Shown here: in pieces, positions 3,194-63,227 of the stretch
How positions within the stretch are numbered: the first letter of the stretch is position 1
Layout of the letters: each line of letters starts with the position of its first letter
NCBI GenBank assembly: GCA_001914405.1
Contig: MSDW01000002.1
Location: 1 to 64,000, forward strand
Reading direction: 5' to 3'
Length of the DNA: 64,000 nucleotides
DNA from: Candidatus Methanohalarchaeum thermophilum
GTDB taxonomy: Archaea > Halobacteriota > Methanonatronarchaeia > Methanonatronarchaeales > Methanonatronarchaeaceae
Translations under genes and position numbers: made by a program
The notes under the pieces: generated by a model
Databases searched by the model: none
Seen by the model: only the letters and a program-made list of their open reading frames with translations
What the model was told of the DNA's origin: nothing

Positions 3194-4139
3194 TATATAA
3201 AGAGTCTTCAAAGCCTATTCTTCATTTTATTTGCCATAAGCCAAAAGCCAGTTTTATCTTAGTAGTTGAGAAGACCCCTCCAAAATCACTGATTTTGGTA
3301 GTGGAGAAAGTCACTATATCAAGGCCTATTTAAATTTAAATGTTAATCGTTTTAGGTTACAGAAAACTACAAAAGAAGAATAGAAGCCAACAAATAATCT
3401 TACCCAAAGATATGATCCTAGGCCTAGAATGGGAAAAAAGAAACAAAATAGACATTAGCTATAACCCGAGTAGCCCAAAGTGCTCAAGGAGCTTTTACCG
3501 TGTTCATTCTTTATCCTTTCTCCATTGATTTAAAACAACTTGTCGGTAGTTCATCATCTTTTATTTCTTTAATTCGGACAGAAAACATCTTTTAACTCAC
3601 CTATCTCCTTTTTTAAATTCAGATTCTTGGCAACTATCTTGGAAACTGTAATATTTACATCTCCATCTCTCGGAAAACGAAAAAAACTCTTCCTTGATCT
3701 TTGTTTTAGATAGAAGTAGTTCACAGTTGTGAAATGCCTCCTATTTTTACTCATATCCGTTCGTAAAGGAAAGAGAAAGAGCTTCCAATGTAACCTCATT
3801 ATCCTGAAGAGTTTGCTTTAACATCCGGGCTTATCCCACAGTATCTAAATTCAACCTCAGGGAACTATTGCCCTAGAGAAAACAGGGACTAGAACCAAAA
3901 AAATGCCATAAACTAATTCTATAAATGCTCCCTATATCCTCTCCGGGCCACGGCCACCCAGCTACTACATCCTACAAAACTTCGAGCATAACCTACACAC
4001 CTATCCTATGCAGAATTTTAGGCTTTATCCGGATGCCTCAAGGAGACATGAAACCACCTTTTGATATATAAAGGGCAGAGAAATGCAATCAACTATAAGT
4101 TATCTCCTCAACCACTATCAGAACTACTTAAGTTCTACA
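3194..4139. other. Transposon-relic zone downstream of tRNA-Thr
   Basis: This stretch has no intact gene. It holds a minus-orientation copy of the hairpin repeat (3252-3314) and, from about 3806, the first copy of the ~0.45-kb repeat that ends in another hairpin unit at 4140-4209. The 76-codon minus-strand frame at 3569-3799 lacks any recognisable domain and is not annotated as a gene. Confidence 0.6.
3252..3314 (-). repeat. Hairpin repeat, long form (IS605-type end)
   Basis: Read on the minus strand this gives the consensus end GTCA...CC, then ACCAAAATCA with its complement TGATTTTGG, then GGGGTCTTCTCAAC and a TAAGATAAAA tail. It is the only clear solo copy in this orientation, and it lies 3' of the plus-strand pgk and tRNA-Thr genes. 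Confidence 0.8.
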
Positions 4140-4210
4140 GTTGATTTATCTCTCTACCTGAAATCAGAGATTTGAGGAAGAAAGGTCTTCACAACCAATA
4201 ATATAAAAGA
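3806..4210 (+). repeat. Copy A of the ~0.45-kb repeat
   Basis: Blocks shared with the copies near 12.9, 20.3, 30.9 and 33.8 kb occur in the same order. They are a GAGTTTGCTTTAACAT block, a CCTCAAGGA-ACATG block followed by TTTTGATA, a CAATCAACT block, a TTAAGT block, and then the hairpin unit at the right end. No open frame crosses it. It ends about 40 bp from the stop codon of the minus-strand Usp gene. Confidence 0.6.
4140..4209 (+). repeat. Hairpin repeat, long form
   Basis: CCTGAAATCAGAGATTTGAGG forms an imperfect stem, followed by the tail GTCTTCACAACCAATAATAT. It lies just 3' of the minus-strand Usp gene and forms the right end of repeat copy A. Confidence 0.75.
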
Positions 4211-4248
4211 ATATAATTTTAGGAAGACTAACTTTAGGTCTTTTGTTC

Positions 4249-5325
4249 TTAGAATTTGCCAACGATTTTTCTCATTATCTTGTTGAAATAGGATTTAATT
4301 CTTTGGTGTTTCTTTACCATTATCACCTGTTTGTCGAATCTTTCCCCAATCTCTTCCGGCACATTACCAAACAGTGCACTTGGTATTAGACCTTTCTCTG
4401 TTGCTCCTAATACGATCATATCGACATCCCTATCCTCTGCGTACTCGATTATATCATCTGCAACCCCCTTCTTTTCTCTAATCGCTACATTCTCTACTTT
4501 ATCCAATCCTTCTTCTATTAAATGTCTTTTATGTTTATCTAAAAGGTTATTAGCTTTCTTTTCACCTTTTTCAAAAACATTAACTAGAATAATCTCTGAA
4601 TCGTATTTTTTTGCAAAGGATTTAGCTATTGATTCGGATAACTCAACATTTCTACCACCAGCCACAGGTATCAGTATCTTTTCAGGTTTGTATTCCTCCA
4701 TTGCCTTAGCTACTGAAACATCACAAGGAGCATTTTCAACCACATAGTCTATCGTGGAACCTAAGAAATAATCAGAAAACCTCTTTCGCTTACCTCTCCA
4801 CCCTAACAAGATTAAATCAACATCTTTTTCGTAAGCCAGATTAGTAATACTTTTTCCTACATCATGGCCCACGGCCGTAATTTTTCTAACAGGAACATCC
4901 TCAATATATTCATCGACTTCTTTTAATATCTCTTTTTGTTCTTTACTGATATATCTATGTCCTTCGTCTAATGGAGTCTGTTCTGGTACGGTTACTATCG
5001 TTGTTACAATTACCTCTCCATTTTTCTCTTTGGCTATCCTTTCTCCTATCTTTGAAAGTCTCTCCGTGTGAATCGGATTAGCTATCGGAACCAAAACCTC
5101 ATATGGTCTTTCAGTTGGTTTTCTTTCTTCTTTCACTAACCTAGTTTCTTCTTTTATTTCCTTTTCTCTAAGATGTCCTCTCGAATAAACAAAAAAGATT
5201 AGAAACCCTACTAAGATCCATATTATTGCTCCAGCCCACGCGATTGGGCTGTATGCAAATAAATAAACGGCTAGGAAGAGTTTCGTTATTATACCTATTA
5301 TAGGCACATAAGGAAAGTAAGGCAT
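4249..5325 (-). CDS. C-terminal half of a split permease-Usp fusion: two TM helices plus tandem Usp domains
   Basis: This encodes 358 residues. The first ~50 form two membrane helices (MPYFPYVPIIGIITKLFLA, then a second hydrophobic stretch ending FFVY). Two universal stress (UspA) domains follow, each with an ATP-loop-like segment: LLGWRGKRKR...STIDYVV in the first and VLGATEKGLIP..FGNVPEEI in the second. No ribosome site precedes the ATG. The frame continues upstream as DELDYGYV, which is how intact amino acid permeases run into helix 11. The stop of the permease gene lies only 14 bp away in another frame. I therefore read it as the rest of one permease-Usp gene broken by a frameshift, either a pseudogene, a phase-variable gene, or a base-call error. 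Confidence 0.85.
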   Translation of the reverse strand: MPYFPYVPIIGIITKLFLAVYLFAYSPIAWAGAIIWILVGFLIFFVYSRGHLREKEIKEETRLVKEERKPTERPYEVLVPIANPIHTERLSKIGERIAKEKNGEVIVTTIVTVPEQTPLDEGHRYISKEQKEILKEVDEYIEDVPVRKITAVGHDVGKSITNLAYEKDVDLILLGWRGKRKRFSDYFLGSTIDYVVENAPCDVSVAKAMEEYKPEKILIPVAGGRNVELSESIAKSFAKKYDSEIILVNVFEKGEKKANNLLDKHKRHLIEEGLDKVENVAIREKKGVADDIIEYAEDRDVDMIVLGATEKGLIPSALFGNVPEEIGERFDKQVIMVKKHQRIKSYFNKIMRKIVGKF

Positions 5326-5339
5326 TACATATCCATAAT

Positions 5340-6593
5340 CTAATTCATCTCCTCTCTCTCTCTTCTTAGTTTTATAGCTGCATAGTTAACCTGTAAGAAA
5401 AGTAAAAGAAACATTACATCAGTGGCTGCTGCTACATCTTCTATTGGAAGGGTAACTGCCATTCCAATGATGAGTGCACCACTGAAAAAAACGGAGAGAT
5501 ATGGAGTTTTCTTTTCAGGGTGAACCTTTTTGAATGCCTCTGGCAATACATAGTCTCTACCCATAGCAAAACCGACTCTGGTGCTAGAAAAAGTTGTTGC
5601 ATTGAGTGCAGACAAAGTAGAAAATATACCAGCCACCAATATCAGCAATGTACCAAAAGGTAATACTTGATTAGCTGCTCTAGCAAATCCTAATTCACCA
5701 AAATGACCAAGAACCTGCCAAAGAGCTGGATCCTCTGGTAAGCCTGTTGCATGCCTCTGAGCCGCCTCTAAGAGCCCAGGAGTTAATTCTATTGGACCTA
5801 GTAACACCACTCCCACTAACATGTAAATAGTTACTACTGCAAGCATTGAATAGAAAACTGCCTTAGGGACATTTTCCTTAGGGTTTACTACTTCTTCTCC
5901 GCTTTGAACAATTATTTCGTATCCCTCAAAAGCTATAAAGGTTAATCCCATAGCGATAAATACACCGCTAAATCCCTTTGGTAAAAATGGACGAAAGTCA
6001 GCAGCTGGATTGGGCGTTCCCAAATAAGCTCCTAAGCCAGCTATTATAAAAAGAACAATAACCGTTACTTTAATTAATGTTACTATGTTTCCTGCTAGTC
6101 CGGTTTCCTTAGCTCCTCTGTAGTTTATATAAGTGAACAAAACTCCAGCAAAAACCGCAAAAATTTTGTGCAAAATGGATTCGGAAACACCAAATGTTAT
6201 CCCAAAGTATTCTACTAGTAGTAGGGTTACGAAGGACCCAAATCCTAGGCAGTAGAGTGAACCGGCCACAGCATGAGCAAACCAACTCATCCAACCTGAT
6301 ATGAACGCCTGGGATCGGCCTAGGGCTTCTCTTACCCATAGGTATCCTCCTCCAGCTTCAGGAATAGCACTACCTAACTCAGCGTAAGCCATTCCCGTAA
6401 AAATGGTTACAAAACCATTTAGAGCAAAGACCAAAAAAAGTGATGGCCCAGCTTCACCTGCAGCAAGTCCTGATAAAACGAATATTCCTGCACCTATCAT
6501 TGCTCCTACGCCAATCATCGAGATATCAAACAAAGAAAGAGTTCTAACTAAAGAAGCTTCTTCAGAGGAATCATTTGTTGCCATAGACTTCAC
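5340..6593 (-). CDS. APC-family amino acid permease, N-terminal ~10 TM helices (frameshifted)
   Basis: This encodes 417 residues of an amino acid-polyamine-organocation transporter. The N-terminus has SLFDISMIGVGAMIGAGIFVLSG, the substrate-binding unwound helix 1 of the family, then GSAIPEAGGGYLWVREALG and AFEGYEIIVQSGEEV. About ten membrane helices are visible, against twelve in the family; the last two lie in the next frame downstream. The break follows a CT dinucleotide tract at 5352-5362 (GA on the coding strand), and loss of one unit would join the frames. The start is GTG at 6593, and its first bases overlap the stop of a small upstream gene (GTGA), implying coupling. Substrate unknown; haloarchaeal relatives are annotated as amino acid importers. 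Confidence 0.88.
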   Translation of the reverse strand: MKSMATNDSSEEASLVRTLSLFDISMIGVGAMIGAGIFVLSGLAAGEAGPSLFLVFALNGFVTIFTGMAYAELGSAIPEAGGGYLWVREALGRSQAFISGWMSWFAHAVAGSLYCLGFGSFVTLLLVEYFGITFGVSESILHKIFAVFAGVLFTYINYRGAKETGLAGNIVTLIKVTVIVLFIIAGLGAYLGTPNPAADFRPFLPKGFSGVFIAMGLTFIAFEGYEIIVQSGEEVVNPKENVPKAVFYSMLAVVTIYMLVGVVLLGPIELTPGLLEAAQRHATGLPEDPALWQVLGHFGELGFARAANQVLPFGTLLILVAGIFSTLSALNATTFSSTRVGFAMGRDYVLPEAFKKVHPEKKTPYLSVFFSGALIIGMAVTLPIEDVAAATDVMFLLLFLQVNYAAIKLRREREEMN

Positions 6594-6721
6594 CTGAAAG
6601 GTCCTTTATTGTATTCGTCTTTTTTTATTTTTTCTACTACATATTTTGAATGAAGAACAAATATAAGTAAACCTAGCCAAGCTAAGATAGATAGAATAAT
6701 TCCAAGAATTAAATCATCCAC
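6590..6721 (-). CDS. Small single-span membrane protein coupled to the permease
   Basis: This encodes 43 residues starting with GTG behind a GAGGTGG ribosome site. Residues 4-24 (LILGIILSILAWLGLLIFVLH without its flanks) form one membrane helix, followed by a basic cytosolic tail ending NKGPFR. Its TGA stop overlaps the GTG start of the permease by two bases, so the two are probably translationally coupled. Small proteins of this type often accompany secondary transporters as accessory or stabilising subunits; that role here is inferred from position only. Confidence 0.65.
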   Translation of the reverse strand: MDDLILGIILSILAWLGLLIFVLHSKYVVEKIKKDEYNKGPFR

Positions 6722-6781
6722 TTCAACCACCTCTTTATTTTTTTAATTGAAAAATCTAATTTAATTTGATTTAAAATATTT

Positions 6782-7684
6782 TTAGAAACTTAATTTATCC
6801 TTTAAAGTTTTAAGTCTTTTTCTTTTTTTAATTATTACTACATTCTCGTTTGAATTAAGGGCTATTTTTTTTGGTATTGAACCAAAGGTTGGCTTTTTAA
6901 ATCTACTTAATTGCGTTGAACCAAGGCATACCGTATCAAAGTTCTTAGATTCATTTATTATGGACTCGACTATATTCTCCCTATTGTATATCCGTAGCTT
7001 ATAATCTTCTCGAGAGATGTTGGCTTCTTCGATTTTTTCCTTTAGTCTTTCTCTAGTTTTATTTTTACTATTATTTTTTCCATTTATGTGTATGATATTT
7101 AATTTGGATTCCTGTGATTCAGTTTGAAATTGATTTGCTCTTTTTAGTGTTTCAAGTGTGTTTGAGTCTTTTTCCTTTTTTATAAATGCTGCAACCTTAC
7201 CGATCTTTGGTTTACCTGGTTTTATTATATTTACTTTACATGGAACGTATTTTAAGATCTTATCTACTTTAGAACCAAATATAAGTTTATTTTGGCTTCG
7301 TTCACCATCCCAGCCCATGTATATTTGGTCTATGTTTTGTTTTTTTACATAATTGATTACCGTCTTCTCAAATTTTCTTCCTGCCATAGCTTTGCTATCG
7401 AAATCGAAATTATCGGAAGTTATTTTGTCTCTAGCTATTTTTAAAATAGCTTTTTGTATTTCTACGATTTTTTTGTCTGGTATTTCTACTTTTGGACTAT
7501 TTAATTTATCTCTTCTTGTTAATGGAGTTTGTTCGGGTAAATTAATAAAGTTGAATCCTATTATTGAACTTTCTTTATATGAGTTTGCAGATGCCTTTGC
7601 AAAATTAATTAAATTTTCTTGAATTTCTGGATAAGCTAACAAAACTAGTATTTTTTCCTTTCTTGACTTCTCCTGATCTTTCAT
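6782..7684 (-). CDS. Tandem universal stress protein (UspA) domains, soluble
   Basis: This encodes 300 residues with two Usp folds. The first begins KEKILVLLAYPE and has YMGWDGERSQNKLIFGSKVD. The second ends VCLGSTQLSRFKKPTFGSIP. The second repeat's G-x-n-G-S-x-P pattern resembles the ATP-binding loop of the family. It is a paralogue of the Usp part of the permease gene downstream but has no membrane segment. A GAGGT site precedes the ATG. It is the first gene of the minus-strand transporter locus and is divergent from the Lrp-type regulator at 7896. The likely role is nucleotide-responsive modulation of the transporter, which is inferred. Confidence 0.82.
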   Translation of the reverse strand: MKDQEKSRKEKILVLLAYPEIQENLINFAKASANSYKESSIIGFNFINLPEQTPLTRRDKLNSPKVEIPDKKIVEIQKAILKIARDKITSDNFDFDSKAMAGRKFEKTVINYVKKQNIDQIYMGWDGERSQNKLIFGSKVDKILKYVPCKVNIIKPGKPKIGKVAAFIKKEKDSNTLETLKRANQFQTESQESKLNIIHINGKNNSKNKTRERLKEKIEEANISREDYKLRIYNRENIVESIINESKNFDTVCLGSTQLSRFKKPTFGSIPKKIALNSNENVVIIKKRKRLKTLKDKLSF

Positions 7685-7895
7685 GGAAATAACCTCTTAA
7701 TGACTATAATTTTGCCTAAATAGACATATAAAAAAGAATACTTAAAAATCTTTTGATCCGATAATATCTAGTTAATTTATTACTGAAAAACCAATATATT
7801 GCCACAAAAATTACGAAAAATAAAAAAATTAATAATGAATTCAATTAAATAATTAATTAATTTAAACAAAAAACAAAAAAACAAGGTACAAAAAA

Positions 7896-8630: not shown

Positions 8631-8781
8631 AAAATACGATAGAACACCTCTCCCCCTACTTCATTTAACAGATCAAAGAAACAAAAACAAACGAAATCCA
8701 ATTAGCCAAAATTTCAATTATCATCCAATTAATTTCACTACTGTACCCCTTACTTAATACTAAAATTTGAGGAATCACTTT

Positions 8782-9666
8782 ATGGTTAAACCAGTTTTAA
8801 AGTGGGCTGGAGGAAAGAGACAGCTCTTAGAAGAGATAATTAAGTTATTTCCAAATGGATACGAGAAAAAGAGACTACATGAGCCAATGGTAGGAGGAGG
8901 AGCTGTAACATTTGAAATAGAACCTAACAAGGGAACAATCAACGATGTAAACGGTCGATTAACGAGATTTTACGAGGTAATAAGAGACAAGCCGGAGGAA
9001 CTAATAGAAGAAAACAGATCCCACAGATACAACGAAGACTATTACTACTCTGCTAGGAAAGAATTCAATAAACCAATCCGCAACGAGGACTTAGACAAAG
9101 TTAGAGAAGCTAGCCTTTTGCTTTATTTAAATAGAACATGTTTCAACGGATTATATAGAGAAAATTCAAAAGGAGAATTTAATGTCCCATTTGGAGACTA
9201 CAATAACCCTGATTATGTAAAAGCAGAACAAATAAGAAACTGTAGCCAAGTACTAAAAAACCTCAAAATCGAGAACAATGACTTTGAATATATACTAGAT
9301 GAAGCTAAAAAAGGAGATCTAGTCTACTTTGACCCCCCATACCAGCCAGTTAGTGAAACAGCTAACTTTACCGAATACTCTAAAGAAGGATTCGAGCTTA
9401 AAGATCAAAAAAGACTCTTTAACACCTGTATTAAATTAGATAAAAAAGAAACATACTTCATATTAAGTAACTCATGGGCAAAACCCATTAGAAAACTATA
9501 CGAAAAACAAAAAAACTTCGAAGTCATCAAAGTTAAAGCAAACAGAGACATAAACAGCAAAGCTAAAAACAGAAAACCTGTCTCAGAGATCCTAGCCACA
9601 AACATACCTAAAGACTTAAGAATAGGTAAAAAACAAAAAGCACTCAAAAAATTCCTAAAAGACTAA
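8782..9666 (+). CDS. dam: Orphan DNA adenine methylase (D12/Dam class)
   Basis: This encodes 294 residues from the ATG at 8782, which follows a TGAGGA ribosome site; an in-frame TTG five codons earlier is less likely. It transfers a methyl group from S-adenosylmethionine to adenine N6 in DNA. The AdoMet motif KWAGGKRQ is at residues 7-14, LNRTCFNGLYREN lies in the middle, and the catalytic DPPY is at residues 184-187. The length is normal. No restriction endonuclease gene adjoins it. The IS5-like relic begins 19 bp after its stop, so it may belong to an accessory patch. Target sequence unknown; family relatives often methylate GATC. Confidence 0.9.
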   Translation: MVKPVLKWAGGKRQLLEEIIKLFPNGYEKKRLHEPMVGGGAVTFEIEPNKGTINDVNGRLTRFYEVIRDKPEELIEENRSHRYNEDYYYSARKEFNKPIRNEDLDKVREASLLLYLNRTCFNGLYRENSKGEFNVPFGDYNNPDYVKAEQIRNCSQVLKNLKIENNDFEYILDEAKKGDLVYFDPPYQPVSETANFTEYSKEGFELKDQKRLFNTCIKLDKKETYFILSNSWAKPIRKLYEKQKNFEVIKVKANRDINSKAKNRKPVSEILATNIPKDLRIGKKQKALKKFLKD

Positions 9667-9685
9667 AAAACAAAAAACATGGCCC

Positions 9686-10653: not shown

Positions 10654-10781
10654 TAGCCAAAAACATTAATTAATTACTTAGAACAGTATTCTATATCAGG
10701 TATAGCTAAAGAAACTTGGATAACATCAAAATGGTAACAATAATTACATAGAAAATGTAAATCTATAATATTGTGGTATAT

Positions 10782-11746: not shown

Positions 11747-11792
11747 GTGACTTCCTCCCCTACCAAAACCAAAAATAGGAGAAAGAGGCTTC
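11747..11792 (+). repeat. Hairpin repeat, short form
   Basis: GTGACTTCC, then CCTACCAAAACC and a weakened second arm, then GAGGCTTCC. It is followed by degenerate coding text on the minus strand, so it looks like the right end of a transposon relic. Confidence 0.6.
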
Positions 11793-12003
11793 CAGAGTCC
11801 AGAGAGCTTCACACCCCTACCGCCGTCAAATCATCCCAGTCTAGGGGCAGGGTTATCCAAGAAGCTTTATTCGGGAAGGTTCCCTGGCTCAGCCAGCGAC
11901 CTTGATAACCAGAACCCCCAACCTGTCCACGGGCTATTGGTTCAGCCACAACCCCTGCCCACGAACCAAAACCTAAGACACGAAGCCATTTAACCCTTAT
12001 AGG

Positions 12004-12070
12004 TTAATTCATCCCTCCTACCAAAATCAAAGATCTTGGAAAGAGGCCTTCTCAACCACTAATATAAAAA
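12004..12070 (+). repeat. Hairpin repeat, long form
   Basis: TTAATTCATCC, then CCTACCAAAATCAAAGATC with TTGGAAAGAGG, then CTTCTCAACCACTAATAT and an A run. It is a near-consensus solo copy. Confidence 0.78.
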
Positions 12071-12300: not shown

Positions 12301-12362
12301 GTGAACTACCCCTACCTAATCAGAGATCTAGGAAGAGGATTTCTCACCAAATAAATTAAAAG
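12301..12362 (+). repeat. Hairpin repeat, long form, at a gene 3' end
   Basis: GTGAACTACC, then CCTACCTAATCAGAGATC with TAGGAAGAGG, then TTTCTCACC and AAATAAATTAAA. It ends about 30 bp from the stop codon of the minus-strand gene at 12393. Confidence 0.78.
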
Positions 12363-12392
12363 GCCTGAATAGAATAAGGTTATTTCTTGGTT

Positions 12393-12845: not shown

Positions 12846-12926
12846 TCTAATTTACCTTAAGTTAATTCCTTACTTTAAATATTACATTCTATATTATATA
12901 AAATTAGAGATCACTAGAAATGTTAA

Positions 12927-13380
12927 GTGCCCCCCCACCTAAATCAGAGATTTAGGGAAGGGATTCCATGTGAGCCTTATCCGGAGTGGAGTTTGCTTTT
13001 CTATCAGGCTTCTCTCACTGCACCTAAATCAACACCTGGAACTATTTGTTTTAAAAGAAGAATTGAATCAGGACACAAAGAAGTATCATATACTAATCAA
13101 ATGGTTCTCTTAATTCTTCATTGGTTGATCCTACGTCAGCCACTAGGAATCCCCTGCTAGAGGTTTCGAGTTCCCCAAATACACCTTATTCGATGTAGAG
13201 TTTTGGGGGGTTTTAAATTAGCCATAATACCTCAAGGGACATGGAAATCGCTTTTTGATAGAGCAAACAATCCAACCAACTGCGAGCTACCCTAAATTGC
13301 TCTTAAAAACCATTTAAGTGCTAGAATTGATTCGTTCTGTGTGAGAGAAGTTCATGTATTCTCCGCCCTAAAGAACCGGG
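12927..13380 (+). repeat. Copy B of the ~0.45-kb repeat
   Basis: It begins with a short-form hairpin (CCACCTAAATCAGAGATTTAGGG), then GGAGTTTGCTTTT, then GCACCTAAATCAACACC with GGAACTATTTG (found inverted near 31.1 kb). It continues with CCTCAAGGGACATGGAAATCG and TTTTTGATA, AATCCAACCAACTGCGAGC, and TTTAAGTGCTAGAATTGATTC. The order matches copies A and C. Confidence 0.65.
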
Positions 13381-14935: not shown

Positions 14936-14936
14936 T

Positions 14937-20048: not shown

Positions 20049-20742
20049 ATCAATACCTCCTTCAGACTAAAGTCTTCATTATTCATCGGATAAGGAGAAA
20101 ACTTAACTCTCTCTTTCAATATTCCTTTTAGTTAATAAAACCAATGTTTCAATATACTTTTTCGAGGGAAATTTAATACAATACCCCTACCTCGAGTAAG
20201 TAATCAAATACGTCTATCCCAACTTATCCTGTTAAGGATAATGAAAAATGTGGAGTAACTTTTACCTTGCTCACCTTCTGTTCGCAAGAAGTGAGCTTCC
20301 GATGCGACGACGAATGCCTTAGTTAGAGAGTGGTTTGCTTTAACATTGCGGCATATTCCACTGCATCTCGAATAAAATACGTCAAACCTATGTGTTCCTT
20401 AAGAGAGGACATGTATCAGGACACGTGCCATGCACTAACCCATAAATGTTCCCTGTATCCACCCTATCAGCCGACTCCACACCAATCTCTCACTTTACTT
20501 CTCAGAGGCTTCAAGTTTACCCCAAAACCTATTTGATGTCGGCTATGGGGCCTTAATTATTACCTCAAGGCTTGAGATTGTTTTTTGATAAGGCAGGTAA
20601 TCCAACTAACTGCCAGTTAACCCTATTTTACTTACTCGAAATATTTAAGTTTTTTTGGGTGATTCATCCTCCTCCCTGAGATCAGAGACTCAAGTAAGAA
20701 GTCTATCCAACCAATAGGATAAAACTTTTGGTTAATTATTTT
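20049..20742. other. Non-coding zone between gltX and rpl7ae with repeat copy C
   Basis: Seven hundred bases without an intact gene. From about 20281 to 20724 lies the third copy of the ~0.45-kb repeat, ending in a long-form hairpin that abuts the gltX stop. Minus-strand text such as FYSRCSGICRNVKANHS may be a decayed zinc-ribbon tail of a TnpB-like protein, but this reading is weak. Confidence 0.55.
20281..20724 (+). repeat. Copy C of the ~0.45-kb repeat with terminal hairpin unit
   Basis: Blocks in order: GAGTGGTTTGCTTTAACATT; CCTCAAGGCTTGAGATTG with TTTTTTGATA; AATCCAACTAACTGCCAG; ATATTTAAGT; and the hairpin CCCTGAGATCAGAGACTCAAG with a TCCAACCAATAGGATAAAA tail (20659-20724). It ends 20 bp from the gltX stop codon. 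Confidence 0.65.
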
Positions 20743-29536: not shown

Positions 29537-29704
29537 GTAATTACCCCCAAAATAAAAGAAGTTATATCACGGTTTTTTCATTAATTGTTGTAGGTTAAAA
29601 AATTTCCCCTAAAAAACCAAAATTTAACAACTTAATTCTAAATTCTACAACAAAATCCCCACCATCCTTTACCTACCAAACGAAACCAAACACACATTTA
29701 AGAA

Positions 29705-29767
29705 GTAACTTCCTCCCCACCAAAATCAGAGATCTAGGAAGGATCTTCCCAACCACTAAGATAAAAA
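29705..29767 (+). repeat. Hairpin repeat, long form, upstream of the superoxide reductase gene
   Basis: GTAACTTCCTCCCC, then ACCAAAATCAGAGATC with TAGGAAGGATC, then TTCCCAACCACTAAGATAAA. It lies between the divergent rpoK and superoxide reductase genes, 50 bp before the latter's start. Confidence 0.78.
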
Positions 29768-30201: not shown

Positions 30202-30777
30202 AACTTTGAACCTGAATAAACTAATAACCAATATTTATAACTATTTAATTCGTTTAATGGCATTAAAGTTCCTTAAAAAAACATAAAACATTAAAAACAC
30301 TACAATAACATCCTCTTTGCCTTAGGAGGGCAGAGCTTCCATCCATTCACACCCACATAGTTTCAAGGTAGAGATACTACCATAAAAGTAACGCAAAAAG
30401 CCACCAACCCCTCATATGCCATTTTCATAAGTTCCACCCCCAAAACCCCACAACACCCCCACACCCAACTCCAAAAACTAGAAGAAAAACCCCACCACAA
30501 ACCTTACCATAAACCCAATACTCCTTACTAACATCAAAACCACCCAAAAACTAAATCAAATGTAAACCCCCCTAAAAAACGACATCCTACCAAACCACCA
30601 AGAAAAAAATACACCAATAAAAAACATCACCTCCACTGACATCCACCTACAAACAAATTCATGGAGATCATTCATTTACCCCATGTCGTGCCATCCGGCT
30701 TTCGAGTTACCTATTGGAAAAGCTTCATAGAGACACTCTGAAAAGGAGTAAACACTCACTTTTTTATATTAGAGCAT

Positions 30778-30816
30778 GGCAGAAAAACCCGCGGCTCTGC
30801 CGTAGGGATAAATGCC
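30778..30816 (+). repeat. Second-class hairpin
   Basis: GGCAGAAAAACCCGCGGC, then TCT, then GCCGTAGGGATAAATGCC. It is the reverse-complement counterpart of the element at 13699-13737. Confidence 0.65.
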
Positions 30817-30839
30817 TTCAGTAACGCTTAAGAGATATT

Positions 30840-31190
30840 AGGAACTGGTTAGAGATAGCCGGCAGTTGATTGGATTTGTCTGCCTTTTTCAAACCAAAAA
30901 TCAATCCCATTGTCTCTCGAGGTATTCTGGCTAAGCTAAAGACCCCAAGACACTACATCAAATAAGATATATTAGGGTAAACTCAAAACCTCTAAGGGGA
31001 AGTCCTAGTGGCTGGTTTAGGAGCTACCAGAAGAGAATAAGGGAACCATCCTAAGAGTTAAGTTAATATATGGGCTCTTGTGTCTTGATCCAATTTTTCT
31101 CTTGGAGCAAATAGTTCCAAGTGTTGATTTAGGTGCATGAGAAAACCCCCGAATGCGAATGGAAAAAAACTCCTTCTATAAATAAGGCTC
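30840..31190 (-). repeat. Copy D of the ~0.45-kb repeat (inverted)
   Basis: On the minus strand the blocks read GCACCTAAATCAACAC with GGAACTATTTG, then GACATTG-like and TTTTTGGTTTGAA blocks, AATCCAATCAACTGCCGGC, and TCTTAAGCG, aligning with copies B and C. It is the only full copy in this orientation. Confidence 0.55.
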
Positions 31191-31192
31191 GT

Positions 31193-31226
31193 AGGAAAGC
31201 TCCACAGCTCTGCTGTGGGGTCACTT
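31193..31226 (+). repeat. Second-class hairpin variant
   Basis: GGAAAGCTCCACAGC, then TCT, then GCTGTGGGGTCACTTC forms an 8-9 bp stem similar to the element at 30778. Confidence 0.5.
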
Positions 31227-31241
31227 CACAACCAGCCTACC

Positions 31242-32459: not shown

Positions 32460-33109
32460 CCGAAAAACCCCCTCTTCTCAAATTCTTCAACTAACTTTCT
32501 ATATAACTCTAAGACCATAAGTTTTTATACAATTAGCGTTCAATTACCCCGAGTTAATCAGTGAACTACCACTACTTTACCCACAATTTATAAGTGATTA
32601 AGAGGTCTTATGCACCACTAAAATAAAACTCTTCAAAGTTAACTAATTTCTCGTGAAACCATCAGTCACTAAATTTTCGGTTAAAAAGGTGAATTCCTTG
32701 GTAACCTCCTCACCTACCTAATCAAAGATTAGGAAGGTGCTTCCATCCATTCACAAGACCAGTATCCAAGATTTGGAGCCTTGTTACCGAATGGTCTAAC
32801 AAAGGCAGACACGGACTGCCAAACATTGCAGGCCCACAAGGACTTAAATACTGGTTTACAGTACTTATGGCCATGTCCATCGCCATCATGCGCCTTGGTC
32901 CTAGGCTCGATCACAGAGGAGGCCCCCCAACCCCACCACGTATCTATTGCGATGGAGCATTGCGCTCAAGTGCTTGCCCACTCAAACTTGGCTATTGGGC
33001 TAGGAATCTCTCAACAAAAACCCCCATTGGCCACCCAAATACAAATACCCTGTAATGATTCACCCTCCCATCCTATCAAAGAAAGGAAGGAGATTTCTCA
33101 GCAAATAAG
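32460..33109. other. Relic zone with two hairpin units
   Basis: There is no intact gene. A degenerate minus-strand peptide at 32729-33050 includes IDTWWGWGASSVIEPRTKA and FVRPFGNKAPNLGYWSCEW. It ends just before a short-form hairpin at 32701-32746, the order expected of a TnpB-type gene followed by its right end. The base composition here (GC-rich) differs from surrounding DNA, suggesting transfer. A second hairpin unit is at 33055-33114. Confidence 0.55.
32701..32746 (+). repeat. Hairpin repeat, short form
   Basis: GTAACCTCCTCACC, then TACCTAATCAAAGATTAGG and AAGGTGCTTCC. It lies 3' of the degenerate minus-strand frame at 32729-33050. Confidence 0.72.
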
Positions 33110-33114
33110 TTAAA
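33055..33114 (+). repeat. Hairpin repeat, long form, overlapping a stop codon
   Basis: ATGATTCACCC, then CATCCTATCAAAGAAAGGAAGG, then TTTCTCAGC and AAATAAGTTAAA. The last bases include the TAA stop of the minus-strand gene at 33110. Confidence 0.7.
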
Positions 33115-49086: not shown

Positions 49087-50109
<1,023 letters not shown>

Positions 50110-51773: not shown

Positions 51774-51776
51774 AGA

Positions 51777-52799: not shown

Positions 52800-52800
52800 A

Positions 52801-52860
52801 GTGAACTACCTCCTACCAAAATCAGAGAATAGGAAGAGGTCTTCTCAACCACTAAGATAA
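52801..52860 (+). repeat. Hairpin repeat, long form, filling the hypE-dnaG gap
   Basis: GTGAACTACC, then TCCTACCAAAATCAGAGAAT with AGGAAGAGG, then TCTTCTCAACCACTAAGATAA. It occupies almost the whole 66-bp gap between the convergent hypE and dnaG stop codons, one base after the first and about 5 before the second. Confidence 0.85.
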
Positions 52861-52865
52861 GTGGA

Positions 52866-55050: not shown

Positions 55051-55101
55051 AGTAAAAAAGAGAAAAAAGGTTTTGTGTTTTGTTTTTTATTTTCCTAGTT
55101 T

Positions 55102-57567: not shown

Positions 57568-57570
57568 TCT

Positions 57571-58755
57571 TTATTCCTCCTCTTTTTCTTCAAAAGCTAA
57601 TTTTCTTATTGCATGTGCGGCTATTCCTGCTGCCGTTACTACTCCACCGATCTTTGCGAAGTCTCCTACATCATACCCTAAGAAAGTTGACAATCCTTCT
57701 ACTGGTTCTTTAAATGGGGTGAATGCTTCCGGGAAACCTGGTTCCGTACATCCAACGCATGGTCCACCACTCTCCATGCAGTAGCTGTTGCCTCCGTGCC
57801 ATTGCTCTTCTGGACAGTTGGCATAGGTCACTGGTGCTTTACAACCTAGTTTCCATAGGCATCCATCGTCTGAATAGGTTTCTGCAAAGTTTCCAACACC
57901 GTAGTCCCCTCTTCTCGTGCAATCCTGGTGTTCTATTTCTCCAAAAATGTCTTTAGGCCTATTATATTGATCTAAAAAGGGTCCTTCTGGTTTAAATGGT
58001 TTTAATTCTTCAGGTTTTGGTAATTTTCCTAATAAAGCTGCAACTACTACAGTCATTAACCAATGAGGGTTAACTGGGCAACCTGGGATATTTATTACAG
58101 GGTATCCTGCAGTTGATCTGTAATCTTTTCCAAGGTATCCTCCTGGTTCGTCTTTTGTAAATTGAACTCCCTTAGCTCCAGTTACTTCTCCTCCTCCTGG
58201 CGCACCAGGGATTCCTCCCCAAGCTGCACAGGCTCCTACTGTACAGGTGATCTTTGCGTTATCCTTCGCTTTATCCAGGTGTTCTATAAAGGGTTTCCCC
58301 CCTATTCTCAAGAAGTTTCCATTCATTTTGTCTTGTACAGATCCTTCAACAACCAATAGATATTCTTCATCGCTTTCGACTAAGTTTTCAAGAGCGTAAT
58401 TAGCGTTATATTCTTCTTCAACTTGTTCTCCATCTACTATAACTCCTGTTTGATAACCAATGACTTCATGGTATCCTACATCTACGCTTACTCCATCTAT
58501 ACCTAATACTGCTTCTGCTAAGGTAGGTGTTTCCGAGTTTAGGGTTGAAATTGAGCATCCCGCGCATTCGGCTCCAGATAGCCAGACAAGTTTGGTTCCT
58601 GAATCTTGAACTCCTTTTGCTAGGTCAGTTGAATATTTTGATAAAAATGCTCCTGCTCCTAGAGCCCCTGCTACTTTCAAAAAATTTCTTCTACTAAGTT
58701 CGAGTACATCTAGGTTTTCTAAATCCATGTCCTGTAGGTCAATCCCTTTTTCCAT
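57571..58755 (-). CDS. vhtG: [NiFe] hydrogenase small subunit with Tat signal (VhtG/VhoG type)
   Basis: This encodes 394 residues. SRRNFLK at 21-27 followed by VAGALGAGAFLSK is a twin-arginine signal, so the folded heterodimer is exported. GAECAGCS (C64, C67) ligates the proximal cluster; the histidine in the medial/distal region and CMESGGPCVGCTEPGFP complete the Fe-S relay. The C-terminus FAKIGGVVTAAGIAAHAIRK is a membrane anchor. It is the first gene of the operon, with GGAGGT about 10 nt before the ATG. Confidence 0.96.
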   Translation of the reverse strand: MEKGIDLQDMDLENLDVLELSRRNFLKVAGALGAGAFLSKYSTDLAKGVQDSGTKLVWLSGAECAGCSISTLNSETPTLAEAVLGIDGVSVDVGYHEVIGYQTGVIVDGEQVEEEYNANYALENLVESDEEYLLVVEGSVQDKMNGNFLRIGGKPFIEHLDKAKDNAKITCTVGACAAWGGIPGAPGGGEVTGAKGVQFTKDEPGGYLGKDYRSTAGYPVINIPGCPVNPHWLMTVVVAALLGKLPKPEELKPFKPEGPFLDQYNRPKDIFGEIEHQDCTRRGDYGVGNFAETYSDDGCLWKLGCKAPVTYANCPEEQWHGGNSYCMESGGPCVGCTEPGFPEAFTPFKEPVEGLSTFLGYDVGDFAKIGGVVTAAGIAAHAIRKLAFEEKEEE

Positions 58756-58949
58756 AACTTAAGTAACCTCCTTATTTAAATTAAACAAATAGACTTCAAA
58801 CATCCCCTATTTTCTCCATTTTTTCCATAAGTTAAATAATTTCGGGTTTATTAAGTTATATTGAATCCTATACTGTTTATGTAATCTTATCTACTTTTTG
58901 ATCAAGGTGTTTAACCTTAAGAGAAAAATAATATTATCAAAAAAACCTA

Positions 58950-59354
58950 TTAAATCCTGTCTTTTTCTTTTTCTTGTTTACCTAAATATGTATAGAGAGA
59001 TTCTACATCAGAAATCTCTTTCAAAAGCATTGCTTTTAATTTTCTCCTATACCAGTCGTTTGGTGTTACACCGTTTTTCTGTAGTAGTTTATGTATTTTA
59101 CTGGATAATTTTTCCCCATGGGCGTCCCAATCCGTTAAAATTATTGCGTTATCATATTTTTCAGCTATTTGCTCAGTTATCTCAAAAAAAGCCTTAGAAT
59201 TCTCAGATAGCTTTACTATCTCGTTAGTAACACCTAGATTTCTTAAAGACTTCTTATCTTGGCTTCCTTCTACCAGAATAACGGATCCTTCTTTTTTTAG
59301 TTTATCCAACACATCTCTTAGTTCAGATAACTTACTTTGATCCTCCCACTTCAA
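58950..59354 (-). CDS. Toprim-domain protein
   Basis: This encodes 134 residues. SVILVEGSQDKKSLRNLGV carries the Toprim glutamate (E29) and AIILTDWDAHGEKLSSKI the D-x-D pair, so the catalytic metal site is complete. The remainder (LKAMLLKEISDVESLYTYL) is helical. Small archaeal Toprim proteins of this kind resemble ribonuclease M5 and the primase core; the substrate is unknown. Its ATG overlaps the pyrC stop, so it is coupled to dihydroorotase, an odd pairing that is nonetheless common in archaea. Confidence 0.85.
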   Translation of the reverse strand: MKWEDQSKLSELRDVLDKLKKEGSVILVEGSQDKKSLRNLGVTNEIVKLSENSKAFFEITEQIAEKYDNAIILTDWDAHGEKLSSKIHKLLQKNGVTPNDWYRRKLKAMLLKEISDVESLYTYLGKQEKEKDRI

Positions 59355-60616
59355 ATTCTCTCACCTTTTCTCTCCTCGAAACCTCCTTTATCATAAACTA
59401 CATCTCCTCTCAATATTGTTTTTTCGGGGAATATGGCCTCCTTTCCTTCATATGGGCTCCAACCACATTTTGAATAAAGATCCGATCTATTTATTTTCTT
59501 TATTTCGTTGAAATCCATTATTACCAAATCCGCATCATTACCTTCTTTTATCTGACCCTTGTTTTTCATATTAAATATCTCCGATGGGTTTCTGGCCATC
59601 AACTTGGACAATGTATTTATAGAAATGTTCTTTCTTTTAACTTGATAAGCAAGCAGGGGTAATGTAGTTTGAACTCCAGGTACGCCGGAAGGTGTATCCC
59701 AGAAATCTCCTTCTTTTTCTCCTACAGTGTGAGGGGCGTGATCCGATGCAATTATATCAACTGATTCGTTTTTTAAGTAATACCAGAGTCTTTTCCGGTT
59801 TCTTTTATTTCTAACTGGTGGATTAGTTTTTATATAAGATCTTTTTTCTTCCAGGTCACTTTTAGTAAAAAATAGGTGATGAGGAGTAACTTCGTATGTC
59901 CAATTTTTTGTGTTGGCCACTATCTTTGCGGCCTTTGCCGTACTGACATGGCAGATATGTACACTATTTTTATCTAAAGTTTTTTTAAGTTCCTTAATTG
60001 ATTTTATTTCAGCTTTTGCTGGCCTAGCTCTTGAAAAATAACCTGGACTTCTATCTCTAAACTTTTTTAGGCCTATATCGACTATCCTCTGATCCTCTGC
60101 ATGTAAAGTTGGCTTTTTATCTAGTTTATTTATCTCATCAACTTTTCCTTTTAATTCATTTAAGTCTATACCTAGTTCATCGTGAGCCAGAAAAATTTCT
60201 CCAAAAGCCGTCGGATCCTCCTTATTTAGTTCGCTGATATCCGTTCCCGACACTACTCCAGCATTTAATCCAAAGTCTACGAAAGACCTCCTAGAAGCTA
60301 ATTTACTTTTTCTCCTAATAGCTTTTCTGGATAAGGTTGGAGGATCAGTATTAGGTTGTTCAACTACGGTTGTTATCCCTCCAGCAGCTGCTGCTTTTGA
60401 TCCAGTCCTCCATGTCTCCTTTTGCTTTTGTTTAAAGTCCCTGAAGTGTACATGTGAATCAATAAAACCAGGTAAAACTATTTTGTTACCTGCGTCAATA
60501 ATTTCTCCATTTAAACCTGTTTTTTTAATTTCGGTTATTTTTCCTCTTTCTATTCCGATATCAGCTTCTATTAAGTTATTTTTATAAAGTATTCTTCCAT
60601 TTTTAACTACTTTCAT
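59351..60616 (-). CDS. pyrC: Dihydroorotase
   Basis: This encodes 421 residues of the class I amidohydrolase type. It closes carbamoyl aspartate to dihydroorotate in pyrimidine synthesis. GFIDSHVHFRD carries H55 and H57, PTLHAEDQ and HICHVST supply later ligands, and IASDHAPHT carries the catalytic Asp. SGVPGVQTTLPLL is typical. An allantoinase-like activity is less likely. A GGAGAG site precedes the ATG. The gene overlaps the AMMECR1 3' end by 14 bp and the Toprim gene by 4 bp. Confidence 0.93.
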   Translation of the reverse strand: MKVVKNGRILYKNNLIEADIGIERGKITEIKKTGLNGEIIDAGNKIVLPGFIDSHVHFRDFKQKQKETWRTGSKAAAAGGITTVVEQPNTDPPTLSRKAIRRKSKLASRRSFVDFGLNAGVVSGTDISELNKEDPTAFGEIFLAHDELGIDLNELKGKVDEINKLDKKPTLHAEDQRIVDIGLKKFRDRSPGYFSRARPAKAEIKSIKELKKTLDKNSVHICHVSTAKAAKIVANTKNWTYEVTPHHLFFTKSDLEEKRSYIKTNPPVRNKRNRKRLWYYLKNESVDIIASDHAPHTVGEKEGDFWDTPSGVPGVQTTLPLLAYQVKRKNISINTLSKLMARNPSEIFNMKNKGQIKEGNDADLVIMDFNEIKKINRSDLYSKCGWSPYEGKEAIFPEKTILRGDVVYDKGGFEERKGERI

Positions 60617-61199
60617 CTATATTTCTCTCCACAATCTCTCCATTTGGTGTCTTTTCAGTAAAGATACTCCCCTGAAACTTGTAGATCTCTACATCTTCAT
60701 CAAGCCAGGCATCTGGTTTAATTCCAGCCTTAGTACATGTATTAGATAAAAACTCAACTTCGCTCCAACCTTGTTCAACAGGAACCTGCGGCAGCAAAAG
60801 ACCTTTTTTATTTCCTTTTTCTATTATCAATCCATCTTCACCGATTTTCACTTTATCTTCAATGTCTTTAGAATCCTCATTTATCTCTTGTGGCTTAGTT
60901 AATATAGTCACTTCAATAGTTACATTACCTAGATCGCTTTCCTTTAAAGGAGGAAACCTTGGGTCGTTGAAGGCTGCTCCCAAAGCAGATTGCTTAACTG
61001 CATCTTCAAGCGTCTGATCAGGATATGGACGGCCTATACAACCAAAAAGATCACCATTCTTATGTAATGTAACAAAAACCCCTCTATTTTCCTTAAACAC
61101 ATCTGAAGTCTCTAATTTGGTTTTTTCATTCTTTAAATTAGCCTCAATCGTCTTTCGAGCTAATTTAATTGCCTCAGCTCCTTCTTCTTTACCTAAAAT
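60603..61199 (-). CDS. AMMECR1-domain protein, apparently starting at ATT
   Basis: This encodes about 198 residues if translation begins at ATT 61199. The first ATG in frame would give only 165 residues and would omit LGKEEGAEAIKLARKTIEAN, which matches the conserved N-terminal helix of the family. A perfect GGAGGT lies 6 nt before the ATT. RGVFVTLHKNGDLFGCIGRP, then SALGAAFNDPRFPPL and LLLPQVPVEQGW are the AMMECR1 hallmarks. The domain's role is unknown; the family is linked to MEMO, whose gene is at 26.6 kb here. It overlaps pyrC. Confidence 0.85.
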   Translation of the reverse strand: MLGKEEGAEAIKLARKTIEANLKNEKTKLETSDVFKENRGVFVTLHKNGDLFGCIGRPYPDQTLEDAVKQSALGAAFNDPRFPPLKESDLGNVTIEVTILTKPQEINEDSKDIEDKVKIGEDGLIIEKGNKKGLLLPQVPVEQGWSEVEFLSNTCTKAGIKPDAWLDEDVEIYKFQGSIFTEKTPNGEIVERNIDESS

Positions 61200-61317
61200 A
61201 ATAAGACCTCCTAGCCAAATAATAACTCTAAAATGATTTATAATTCTTTAAGTTCATTAAACTTGAATTAAACTAAGACCTTCAAACAACTATAACATTC
61301 AAACAACCATAATACGT

Positions 61318-61360
61318 GTGAACTAACCATTACCTAATCAAAGATTAGGAAGGGACTTCA
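61318..61360 (+). repeat. Hairpin repeat, short form, right end of a TnpB relic
   Basis: GTGAACTAACC, then ATTACCTAATCAAAGATTAGG and AAGGGACTTC. On the minus strand it follows the tnpB relic's 3' end, the position of an IS605-type right end and guide-RNA scaffold. Confidence 0.82.
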
Positions 61361-61399
61361 GGAGAAGTTTAAATTAGGCTCATATTTACATTTGAGCCA

Positions 61400-62300
61400 T
61401 ATCTTAACCCAAATGGCTTTCTTATTCTTCTCGGCGTGTCCACACCACCACTACCCCCCTACTCCTACTTCAAATGTTTCAGGCTTACCCAACTCCTTCA
61501 ATCCTTTCTTAGCTACATTCAAAGCACCATCTACATCAACATTAATCAAACTACCATCACCCATCATATATAACCCTCTTTCAATTCTCCCTCCCTCATA
61601 GCCTTGCTTTTTCCCCTACCCCACATCCGCTAACCCATTACACTTACTCGAACATAACTCATAAACAAACTCAAACCCTATACCATAATACTCCAGTTCA
61701 CGCTCCAATTTTTGCTAAAACTCATCAAACAATACCTAAACAAACCTCCCAATGATACAACCACCTAAATCTACCCTCCTCCACCACTCCCCCCACCACC
61801 ACAAAACACCTCCCCATACCCTACTCTCTTTAAAGCAATCAACAATCACCTAAGCTGCCTCATCCAAACAATCATACACATAGTTGCTCCTGTCCCTAAA
61901 CAACTTGTTTATTCTCTCCGTGCCCCCTCTCAATACCCTGCTTATCCTTAACAGATTGTAACCTAGCCACTTCCTTATCGAACCACCTGTTATACAATTT
62001 AAGCTCACACCCATCCAAAACAAATAAACGCCCAAAATAGCCAACACAAACAACCTAGATAACCAGAACCCAAAACAACACCTAAACAAACACCCTCCCC
62101 CGTCTCAACTAATTCCTTCTCTCCCTCACATATAACTCAACACTCAAAATATCGAGCACCCGCCTCAGAGGATTACTTGTAATCGCTTAATCTCCTTTTC
62201 CCTAACCTCCCCAAAGATAAACGGTATCCGAATCTCTTTTAATTTTGAGGCTGTATTGTTTTCTGAAGTCCTTGGAGACTCCGATCCTTATGTGATCCTC
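61400..62300 (-). pseudogene. tnpB: Degenerate tnpB (IS200/IS605 OrfB), RNA-guided nuclease relic 1
   Basis: Read on the minus strand, broken frames give in order HIRIGVSKDFRKQYSLKIKR, then GCELKLYNRWFDKEVARLQS with VKDKQGIERG, then RINKLFRDRSNYVYDCLDEA, then ERELEYYGIGFEFVYELCSS, and finally [20 protein letters not shown]. This is the order of TnpB: barrel, RuvC helices and the D-x-NGALN end of the last RuvC motif. Many stops and frameshifts are present. No tnpA transposase is adjacent. The plus strand here is strikingly poor in G. Confidence 0.9.
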
Positions 62301-62333
62301 CTTGACCTGGAACCCCTGCCTTGGGCTAGTTCA

Positions 62334-62374
62334 GTCAACTACCCCTACCAAAATCAAAGATTTTGGAAGGGGCT
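62334..62374 (+). repeat. Hairpin repeat, short form
   Basis: GTCAACTACCC, then CTACCAAAATCAAAGATTTT with GGAAGGGGC. It is the best-paired copy (CCAAAATC with GATTTTGG), lying 3' of the second tnpB relic on the minus strand. Confidence 0.85.
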
Positions 62375-62375
62375 T

Positions 62376-62708
62376 GTGTATGATAGGACCAGACCACATG
62401 TACAATTTAATTATCGGTTTCCTCGGAGAACTTCCGTTACACACAGAGAGGTTCTCGCTCATCTAGAACCGATTCCAAGGGCCAGTTGACCGTGACCCAT
62501 CCACTTCTGGGAACCGAACATGGTCAGTGGTTCCATCGGCTCTCGCGAGCACGCTTTTGCCCGAAGCGGAAAAGTTCAGGTTCTCAAGCATGGTAGCGTT
62601 CCCCAAAGAAGCGGTTTTCCCTCCTTTAAGAGAGTGCCTTAAACCAGGAGCCAACCATTCAAACCTATTGACTTTGACCAAAAATATGTGTTCTAGCCAT
62701 TCAAGCAT
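62376..62708 (-). pseudogene. tnpB: tnpB relic 2, C-terminal tail
   Basis: An open stretch of about 81 codons reads NRFEWLAPGLRHSLKGGKTA, then ASGKSVLARADGTTDHVRFP and EVDGSRS. It ends before a hairpin right end at 62334-62374. The order suggests the C-terminal tail of a TnpB-type protein lying beyond the zinc ribbon. It is more GC-rich than the surroundings. The rest of the gene is missing. Assignment rests on context more than on motif. Confidence 0.6.
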
Positions 62709-62710
62709 TA

Positions 62711-62760
62711 CCTCAATTCCTCTCCCACCTAATCAGAGATTAGAAAGGAGTCTCCTTGAG
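62711..62760 (+). repeat. Hairpin repeat, short form, at an internal deletion junction
   Basis: CTCAATTCCTC, then CCCACCTAATCAGAGATTAG and AAAGGAGTC. It follows the N-terminal tnpB fragment (62750-63120) directly, so everything between residue ~125 and the right end has been lost in that copy. Confidence 0.75.
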
Positions 62761-63120
62761 GTGAAAAGATGAATAATACCCTTCTTTGTCTAGGTAAGTT
62801 GGTGGTTGAGGTTCTTCCGTGTACTTACCCTCTCTTTTTCTTCTCAATTAATTTAAAAAAGGATTGGAAGGCTTTGTCCACATGCTTCATCGTTTGCTGA
62901 GTCACCTGAGAAGGCAAACCTCATAGTTCTCACTCTCACCCCTCAATCCTTTGTAGGCGTTGTAGTAGTTTAGGTATTCTCCGTTTTTGTGGAAATACTC
63001 CATATCACCTTGTATAAATGTCTCATTGCATAGGTCTTTACTTCTATGAGTCATTTGCTCAATCACCTTGTGTTCTTCACTGCTTAGGTCTGATAGATGC
63101 TGTCTCAACGCCTTCTTCAT
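62750..63120 (-). pseudogene. tnpB: tnpB relic 3, N-terminal third
   Basis: It starts at ATG 63120: MKKALRQHLSDLSSEEHKVI, then [31 protein letters not shown], a one-base frame change near 62930, [18 protein letters not shown], and GKY-like text with PPTYLDKEGYYS. This is the typical TnpB N-terminus (Y-x-x-Y-x2-L-R-x-S-E-N-Y, then SQV-x-QQT-x-x-x-VD-x-AF-x-SFF). It stops at a hairpin right end, leaving only about 120 codons, so the copy is internally deleted and inactive. Confidence 0.88.
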
Positions 63121-63164
63121 TCTCTTATCATATACCTTTATATCTCCCTATTTAAGTGTTGAGG

Positions 63165-63227
63165 TTGATTCATCCCCCACCAAAATCAGAGATCATGGAA
63201 GAGGTCTCCTCAACCACCAAAATAAAG
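63165..63227 (+). repeat. Hairpin repeat, long form
   Basis: TTGATTCATCCC, then CCACCAAAATCAGAGATCATGG and AAGAGGTCTCC, then TCAACCACCAAAATAAA. It lies between tnpB relic 3 and the promoter of the zinc-ribbon gene. Confidence 0.78.

What the first reader, a model, noticed from the sequence alone, without database searches (positions are those of the whole stretch)
3252..63227. A dispersed family of about 16 short hairpin repeats resembling IS605/TnpB right ends
One motif recurs at 3252, 4140, 11747, 12004, 12301, 12927, 20659, 29705, 32701, 33055, 49461, 52801, 61318, 62334, 62711 and 63165. The core is GTGAAyTACCTCC, then CCwAAATCAGAGATTTwGG, then AAGrGGnCTTC. Stem bases vary in a compensated way (CCAAAATC/GATTTTGG in some copies, CCTAATC/GATTAGG in others). 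Copies at 61.3, 62.3 and 62.7 kb sit exactly 3' of tnpB pieces, so the core is probably the right end and guide-RNA scaffold of a TnpB transposon. About nine copies carry no tnpB but instead share a tail CTCAACCACTAATATAAAA. These look like minimal, palindrome-associated non-autonomous elements, as described for IS200/IS605 relatives in haloarchaea.
Basis: partly seen in the sequence, partly recalled or inferred. Interest (0 to 1): 0.8.

Follow-up and report, generated by a model that had tools for sequence, protein, structure and literature searches.

The report
Guide-RNA-only transposons in a salt-loving archaeon
The short hairpins are the two ends of a large family of jumping DNA elements that have lost their protein genes, yet most copies still carry a conserved, folded RNA gene related to the guide RNA of the DNA-cutting protein TnpB, so they may borrow that protein to spread and persist.

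Summary
The hairpin family is real. A covariance model scores at least 150 copies in the genome and the stems covary. Two points change. First, the tail (TTTATcTTAGTGGTTGAG on the opposite strand) is the LEFT end; it also stands 5' of intact tnpB genes, and TTTAT is the retained target site (one empty site resolved). Second, most tail copies are not minimal. Of 130 classified, 81 carry a 250-430 nt non-coding body between left and right end, 32 are ~62-nt single-hairpin minimal elements, 9 are linked to tnpB, 8 are other. Two body types (A, B) are homologous to the 3' end of tnpB genes in the same genome, i.e. to the omegaRNA. Type B shows strong covariation, strongest in helices that tnpB loci lack. 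Type A/B right ends (GAGGAAGTCAC, GGGTCACTTCAC) are essentially never next to tnpB (1/35, 1/72), whereas GGGTAGTTCAC is (29/69). These look like independent omegaRNA-only elements, a prokaryotic counterpart of the 'ghost' Fanzor loci. Trans use of TnpA and TnpB is inferred; no expression data exist here.

The parts
11747..12068 (-). Type-A omegaRNA-only element: left end 12003-12068, RNA body, right end GGGGAGGAAGTCAC at 11747
   Evidence: R1 70.6 bits; type-A body profile E 6.5e-56 over 12001-11788; right-end pattern
3729..4207 (-). Type-B omegaRNA-only element: left end 4140-4207, body 4065-3797, degenerate right end at 3729
   Evidence: R1 48.1 bits; type-B profile E 3.2e-18; ends
20255..20723 (-). 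Type-B omegaRNA-only element, decayed right end
   Evidence: R1 31 bits; type-B profile E 6.8e-14
12922..13337 (-). Type-B omegaRNA-only element; right end at 12922, left end decayed (its inner edge at 13320-13337)
   Evidence: Type-B profile E 5e-38 over 13259-12964; R1 43.1 bits at the right end
30763..31229 (+).
   Evidence: Type-B profile E 3.7e-39 over 30893-31196; weak left end, R1 11.1 bits
61318..63226 (-). Type-B tnpB pseudogene element: left end 63164-63226, right end at 61318, interrupted by the type-D element
   Evidence: R1 78.5 bits at the left end; tblastn type-B TnpB pieces downstream of L014; type-B profile 61505-61356 E 1e-14
62334..62768 (-). Type-D RNA-bearing element nested in the tnpB pseudogene; left hairpin 62713-62765, right end GGGGTAGTTGAC at 62334; left boundary uncertain by a few bases
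   Evidence: Body repeated in L175, L030, L023, L039 (E 8e-101 to 1e-21); position inside tnpB from paralogs
32701..33114 (-). Family-F RNA-bearing element, left end 33054-33114, right end at 32701
   Evidence: Body repeated in L029, L022, L026, L211, L144, L125 and in the second genus, L220; ends
49461..49880 (-). Family-G element: right end at 49461-49479; left limit not resolved, 49880 is only the limit of the query used
   Evidence: Body repeated in L202, L108, L109, L187, L177
52801..52861 (-). Minimal single-hairpin element (left-end tail + one hairpin + GTTCAC)
   Evidence: R1 66.6 bits
29704..29765 (-). Minimal single-hairpin element
   Evidence: R1 77.5 bits
12301..12360 (-). Minimal single-hairpin element ending TAGTTCAC
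   Evidence: R1 42.9 bits; right-end pattern
3253..3314 (+). Minimal single-hairpin element ending AAAGTCAC, opposite orientation
   Evidence: R1 61.9 bits

Best explanation
The hairpins are the left- and right-end palindromes of IS200/IS605-type elements. Most copies belong to protein-less elements that consist of a left end, a TATA-like promoter, a structured omegaRNA-type RNA gene and a right end; the host DNA just after the right end supplies the guide. Such an element would be moved as single-stranded DNA by a Y1 transposase (TnpA) from another locus. It would then be kept, or copied onto sister chromosomes, because its own omegaRNA directs a TnpB made elsewhere to cut the empty site (TTTAT followed by the right flank). 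The ~62-nt copies are end products of recombination between the near-identical left and right hairpins. Shown: ends, target site, homology of type A/B bodies to tnpB 3' ends, covariation, distinct right ends, intact tnpA and tnpB in the genome. Inferred: transcription, TnpB loading in trans, cleavage and retention.
For: Left end of tail copies equals the left end of tnpB elements. Sharp TTTAT and TCAC boundaries over 79 elements. Empty-site paralogs L115/L211 of the type-A insertion in L177: insertion exactly 3' of CTTAT, no duplication. Body profiles without the right-end hairpin hit tnpB 3' ends: type A E 4e-7 to 3e-5, type B E 3e-15 to 2e-13. Type-B covariation 50 both-side changes against 23.2 +/- 3.4, strongest in helices outside the tnpB-homologous part, score 0.450 against 0.230 shuffled. 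No long reading frames. TATA-like motif at a fixed place after the left end. Own right-end sequences, 1/72 and 1/35 next to tnpB against 29/69. Intact TnpB types A and B and an IS200-type TnpA in the genome.
Against: No transcript data. The right-end sequence just before the guide differs from that of tnpB-linked omegaRNAs, so loading on the resident TnpB is not assured. Type C has no tnpB relation found, and F and G were not tested thoroughly. The type-A consensus structure is weak. Type-B TnpB has no glutamate in the usual RuvC-II place in my reading of the alignment, so its nuclease activity is uncertain. Shuffle controls do not remove relatedness of the copies.
Confidence: 0.6

Rival explanations
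1. Passive deletion derivatives (classical PATEs): only the ends matter for mobilisation by TnpA; the RNA body is a passenger left over from tnpB elements.
For: PATEs and core deletions are known in Haloquadratum (PMC3119063); a PATE-like copy with the last 58 nt of tnpB plus the right end is known in Halanaerobium (PMC7290912). 32 of 130 copies here are end-only. Many copies are decayed.
Against: Covariation in the body, strongest where tnpB has no counterpart; type C and F bodies shared with a second genus; own right-end lineages.
Confidence: 0.25
2. TnpB decoys: the RNAs bind TnpB but, with altered 3' ends, do not guide cutting, and so protect the element or the cell from TnpB.
For: Homology is to the 5' core of the omegaRNA while the segment before the guide differs from tnpB-linked copies.
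Against: The right-end border and guide position are retained; ghost Fanzor omegaRNAs that differ from the canonical ones do work as guides (PMC10432273).
Confidence: 0.1
3. REP-like hairpins of a RAYT system, or transcription terminators near gene ends.
For: Short single hairpins, dispersed, some lying just 3' of genes.
Against: Same ends as tnpB elements. The transposase is an IS200-type TnpA (NF033573, 125.8 bits, over its cut-off), not a RAYT (33.4 bits against a cut-off of 80).
Confidence: 0.03

Closest known systems
Ghost Spu-1 elements of Fanzor in Spizellomyces punctatus (PMC10432273)
   Same: Many protein-less copies (134) between the nuclease element's end repeats, with a conserved region and an omegaRNA that differs somewhat from that of the nuclease loci; ends also distinct
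   Different: Eukaryote, inverted repeats and Fanzor; there the ghost omegaRNA was shown to work. Here: archaeon, IS200/IS605 hairpin ends, TnpB, several RNA body types, no functional test
PATEs of Haloquadratum walsbyi (PMC3119063)
   Same: Protein-less elements with near-terminal palindromes like those of IS605 elements, no target duplication, terminal-only versions (down to 52 bp) by repeat-mediated deletion
   Different: No RNA gene is described in their cores in the passages read; here most copies carry a covarying RNA related to the omegaRNA
PATE-like copy in Halanaerobium hydrogeniformans (PMC7290912)
   Same: Left-end hairpin + last 58 nt of tnpB + full right end, i.e. the omegaRNA region is retained
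   Different: One copy, read there as an ends-only remnant; here dozens of copies in families
omegaRNAs / sotRNAs of archaeal tnpB genes (PMC12558985)
   Same: omegaRNA from the 3' part of IS200/IS605 tnpB loci in archaea
   Different: Linked to tnpB; the text has no hit for orphan, standalone, MITE or PATE

Membership tests
IS200/IS605 non-autonomous element (PATE) | Palindromic (hairpin) ends like those of resident IS605/tnpB elements | tested here: met
   Same left end before tnpB and in protein-less copies; stem covaries
IS200/IS605 non-autonomous element (PATE) | Insertion 3' of a short target motif, without target duplication | tested here: met
   One resolved empty site, CTTAT|TCC; TTTAT at 79 left boundaries
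IS200/IS605 non-autonomous element (PATE) | No transposase gene inside; Y1 TnpA available in trans | tested here: met
   Longest stop-free stretches short; intact IS200-type TnpA at L047 behind the same left end
IS200/IS605 non-autonomous element (PATE) | Mobilised by that TnpA | not testable with these tools
   Needs an excision assay
Ghost omegaRNA element (as in Fanzor) | Protein-less copy carries a guide-RNA scaffold homologous to that of the nuclease locus | tested here: met
   Types A and B against tnpB 3' ends; not met or not shown for type C
Ghost omegaRNA element (as in Fanzor) | RNA is made and guides the nuclease | not testable with these tools
   No RNA data
MITE (terminal inverted repeats and target duplication) | Target duplication | tested here: not met
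   Empty site shows none
Known Rfam RNA family | Match to a curated covariance model | tested here: not met
   Only tRNAs in the window; no relevant match on eight element and tnpB loci at E <= 1

The most novel reading that the evidence does not exclude
Independent lineages of guide-RNA-only IS200/IS605 elements outnumber tnpB genes in this archaeon, have evolved their own RNA domains and right ends, and work as TnpB-dependent gene drives between chromosome copies. Types C, F and G would be further standalone guide-RNA classes whose protein partner is unknown.
Probability: 0.35. Interest if true: 0.82.

Novelty: new variant of a known kind. Interest (0 to 1): 0.62.

Why it matters
Two known things are joined: protein-less IS605 derivatives (PATEs), usually treated as scraps, and the guide RNA of TnpB. 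If the RNAs are used in trans, PATEs are RNA-guided parasites and a prokaryotic parallel to Fanzor ghost loci. The open question whether TnpB serves elements other than its own then becomes testable in one organism with dozens of natural guides.

Tried and rejected
Orientation bias along the replicons, expected for single-strand transposition: not significant (C1 p 0.71, C2 p 0.25); the one-strand look in the window does not hold genome-wide. MAFFT alignment of bare hairpins was poor; replaced by equal-length seeds and a covariance model. RNAalifold structure for type A: weak covariation, not relied on. Type-C body against tnpB loci: no homology found. Rfam: no match. Euryarchaeal relatives: 46 copies in one genome of the same family, none in the 19 others. 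REP/RAYT and classical MITE readings rejected. Papers on standalone TnpB guide RNAs in prokaryotes: none found in the held library; key subscription papers (Altae-Tran 2021 and 2023, Meers 2023, named from memory) are not held, so novelty against them is untested.

Full report
Setting. The window is 64 kb of contig C2 of a 2.14-Mb genome in four contigs. Its elongation factor 2 is closest to archaeon SCG-AAA382B04 (82%), with a Methanonatronarchaeales MAG at 69%, so the host is most likely a relative of the extremely halophilic methanogens (inference). The genome holds 61 OrfB_IS605 (TnpB) pieces and 24 Y1 transposase pieces.

The observation. The literal consensus string is hardly rarer than chance, but the structured family is far beyond it. 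A covariance model built from six copies finds 14 of the 16 listed places in the window and at least 150 in the genome, a floor because only 150 candidates were scored. The stem covaries: 110 both-side changes against 47.1 +/- 5.2, score 0.383 against 0.235 shuffled and at most 0.090 slid (the alignment was fitted to the structure).

Anatomy. Read on the element strand (minus in the window, except 3253-3314 and 30763-31229), a tail copy is TTTATcTTAGTGGTTGAG-AAGACC-hairpin. The same unit stands 5' of intact tnpB genes, and a hairpin ending in TAGTTCAC stands 3' of them. The tail is therefore the left end. Over 79 elements the left boundary is sharp at TTTAT and the right one at TCAC. One type-A element lies antisense in a gene whose uninterrupted paralogs in the same genome read CTTAT|TCC. 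The insertion is exactly 3' of the pentamer without duplication, as for IS200/IS605.

Kinds of copy. Of 130 left ends with their downstream DNA, 33 are type A, 43 type B, 5 type C, 32 minimal single hairpins, 9 linked to tnpB and 8 other. Types A, B and C are about 320, 460 and 500 nt from end to end. Further body families D, F and G occur in the window and elsewhere. The minimal elements end in the same flavours as the longer ones (GAGGAAGTCAC, GGTCACTTCAC, GGGTAGTTCAC), as expected from recombination between the similar left and right hairpins. Such core deletion, down to 52 bp, is known in Haloquadratum (PMC3119063).

The body is an RNA related to the omegaRNA. Profiles of the type-A and type-B bodies, with the right-end hairpin left out, hit the 3' ends of tnpB genes and no other part of them: type A E 4e-7 to 3e-5, type B E 3e-15 to 2e-13. 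In type B the homology includes the last codons of tnpB (GKPETSGVG) although no long reading frame is kept. The type-B structure has 37 pairs with 50 both-side changes against 23.2 +/- 3.4 in shuffles, score 0.280 against 0.194 shuffled and at most 0.107 slid. Helices at columns 345-381 lie outside the tnpB-homologous part (columns about 147-320) and covary most: 7 of 8 pairs, score 0.450 against 0.230. This suggests the RNA has been evolving under structural constraint in the protein-less lineage, not merely as a leftover of tnpB; the shuffle control does not remove relatedness, so this is strong but not conclusive. Type C is a large predicted fold (69 pairs, nine with compensatory change) found in two genera, without known tnpB relation. 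A TATA-like motif lies 5-10 nt after the left end in nearly all A and B copies.

The lineages have their own right ends. GGGTCACTTCAC occurs 72 times and GAGGAAGTCAC 35 times in the genome (reversed-pattern control 0). Only one of each lies within 900 nt downstream of an OrfB domain on the same strand, no more than on the wrong strand. GGGTAGTTCAC does so in 29 of 69 listed places, against 0 on the wrong strand (the list of that search was cut at 100 places).

Helpers in the genome. Type-A TnpB (399 aa) is an RNA-guided TnpB by NCBIfam and aligns over most of its length with TnpB structures in the PDB (8bf8, 8ex9, 8h1j). Type-B TnpB passes the same family cut-off. An intact IS200-type TnpA lies behind a left end of the same family (L047).

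Mechanism proposed. TnpA made elsewhere recognises the end hairpins and moves the element as single-stranded DNA to a TTTAT site. From its own promoter the element makes an omegaRNA whose 3' tail is the new right flank. TnpB made elsewhere, loaded with it, would cut the empty site (TTTAT followed by that flank), and repair from a copy that holds the element restores or spreads it. The first half rests on anatomy and one empty site. The RNA part rests on homology and covariation. Loading and cutting are inferred from what is known of TnpB and from the ghost Fanzor loci, whose omegaRNAs differ from the canonical ones and yet work (PMC10432273).

Window inventory. Type A 11747-12068. Type B 3729-4207, 20255-20723, 12922-13337 and 30763-31229(+). 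A type-B tnpB pseudogene 61318-63226 with a type-D element 62334-62768 inside it. Family F 32701-33114. Family G from 49461. Minimal 52801-52861, 29704-29765, 12301-12360 and 3253-3314(+).

Verdict. Observation confirmed; interpretation partly right. The novelty lies in the omegaRNA-only elements: a prokaryotic variant of the ghost-element idea and a new reading of PATEs. Similar statements may exist in papers that are not held here.

Noticed in passing
L018, L020, L101, L112, L121; L219, L221 (second genus): Type-C bodies are a ~420-nt, strongly folded RNA (69 predicted pairs) conserved in two genera, between IS605-type ends, with no tnpB counterpart found and no Rfam match on the copy tested (L018).
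   Followed up: partly
window 8767-9666: D12-class N6-adenine DNA methyltransferase (PF02086, E 4e-68) amid element-rich DNA; possibly a restriction-modification remnant or an orphan methylase.
   Followed up: no
L008:952-2286: Type-B TnpB has GDGKGWK where the RuvC-II glutamate is usually found; either a moved catalytic residue or an inactive nuclease.
   Followed up: no
L207 (C1:1498300-1501600), downstream of tnpB: A type-B body lies directly behind the right end (GGGAGAAGTCAG) of an IS605 element that has its own tnpA and tnpB, with no left end seen between; element-next-to-element arrangement.
   Followed up: no
L208, L209, L215: A distinct G+C-richer tnpB group with its own end (GGGTTAGCTTAC), two near-identical 415-aa copies; looks recently acquired.
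   Followed up: no
window 30763-31229: Left and right hairpins of this type-B element share a different loop sequence (GCTCTGC), as if the two ends had been homogenised together.
   Followed up: no
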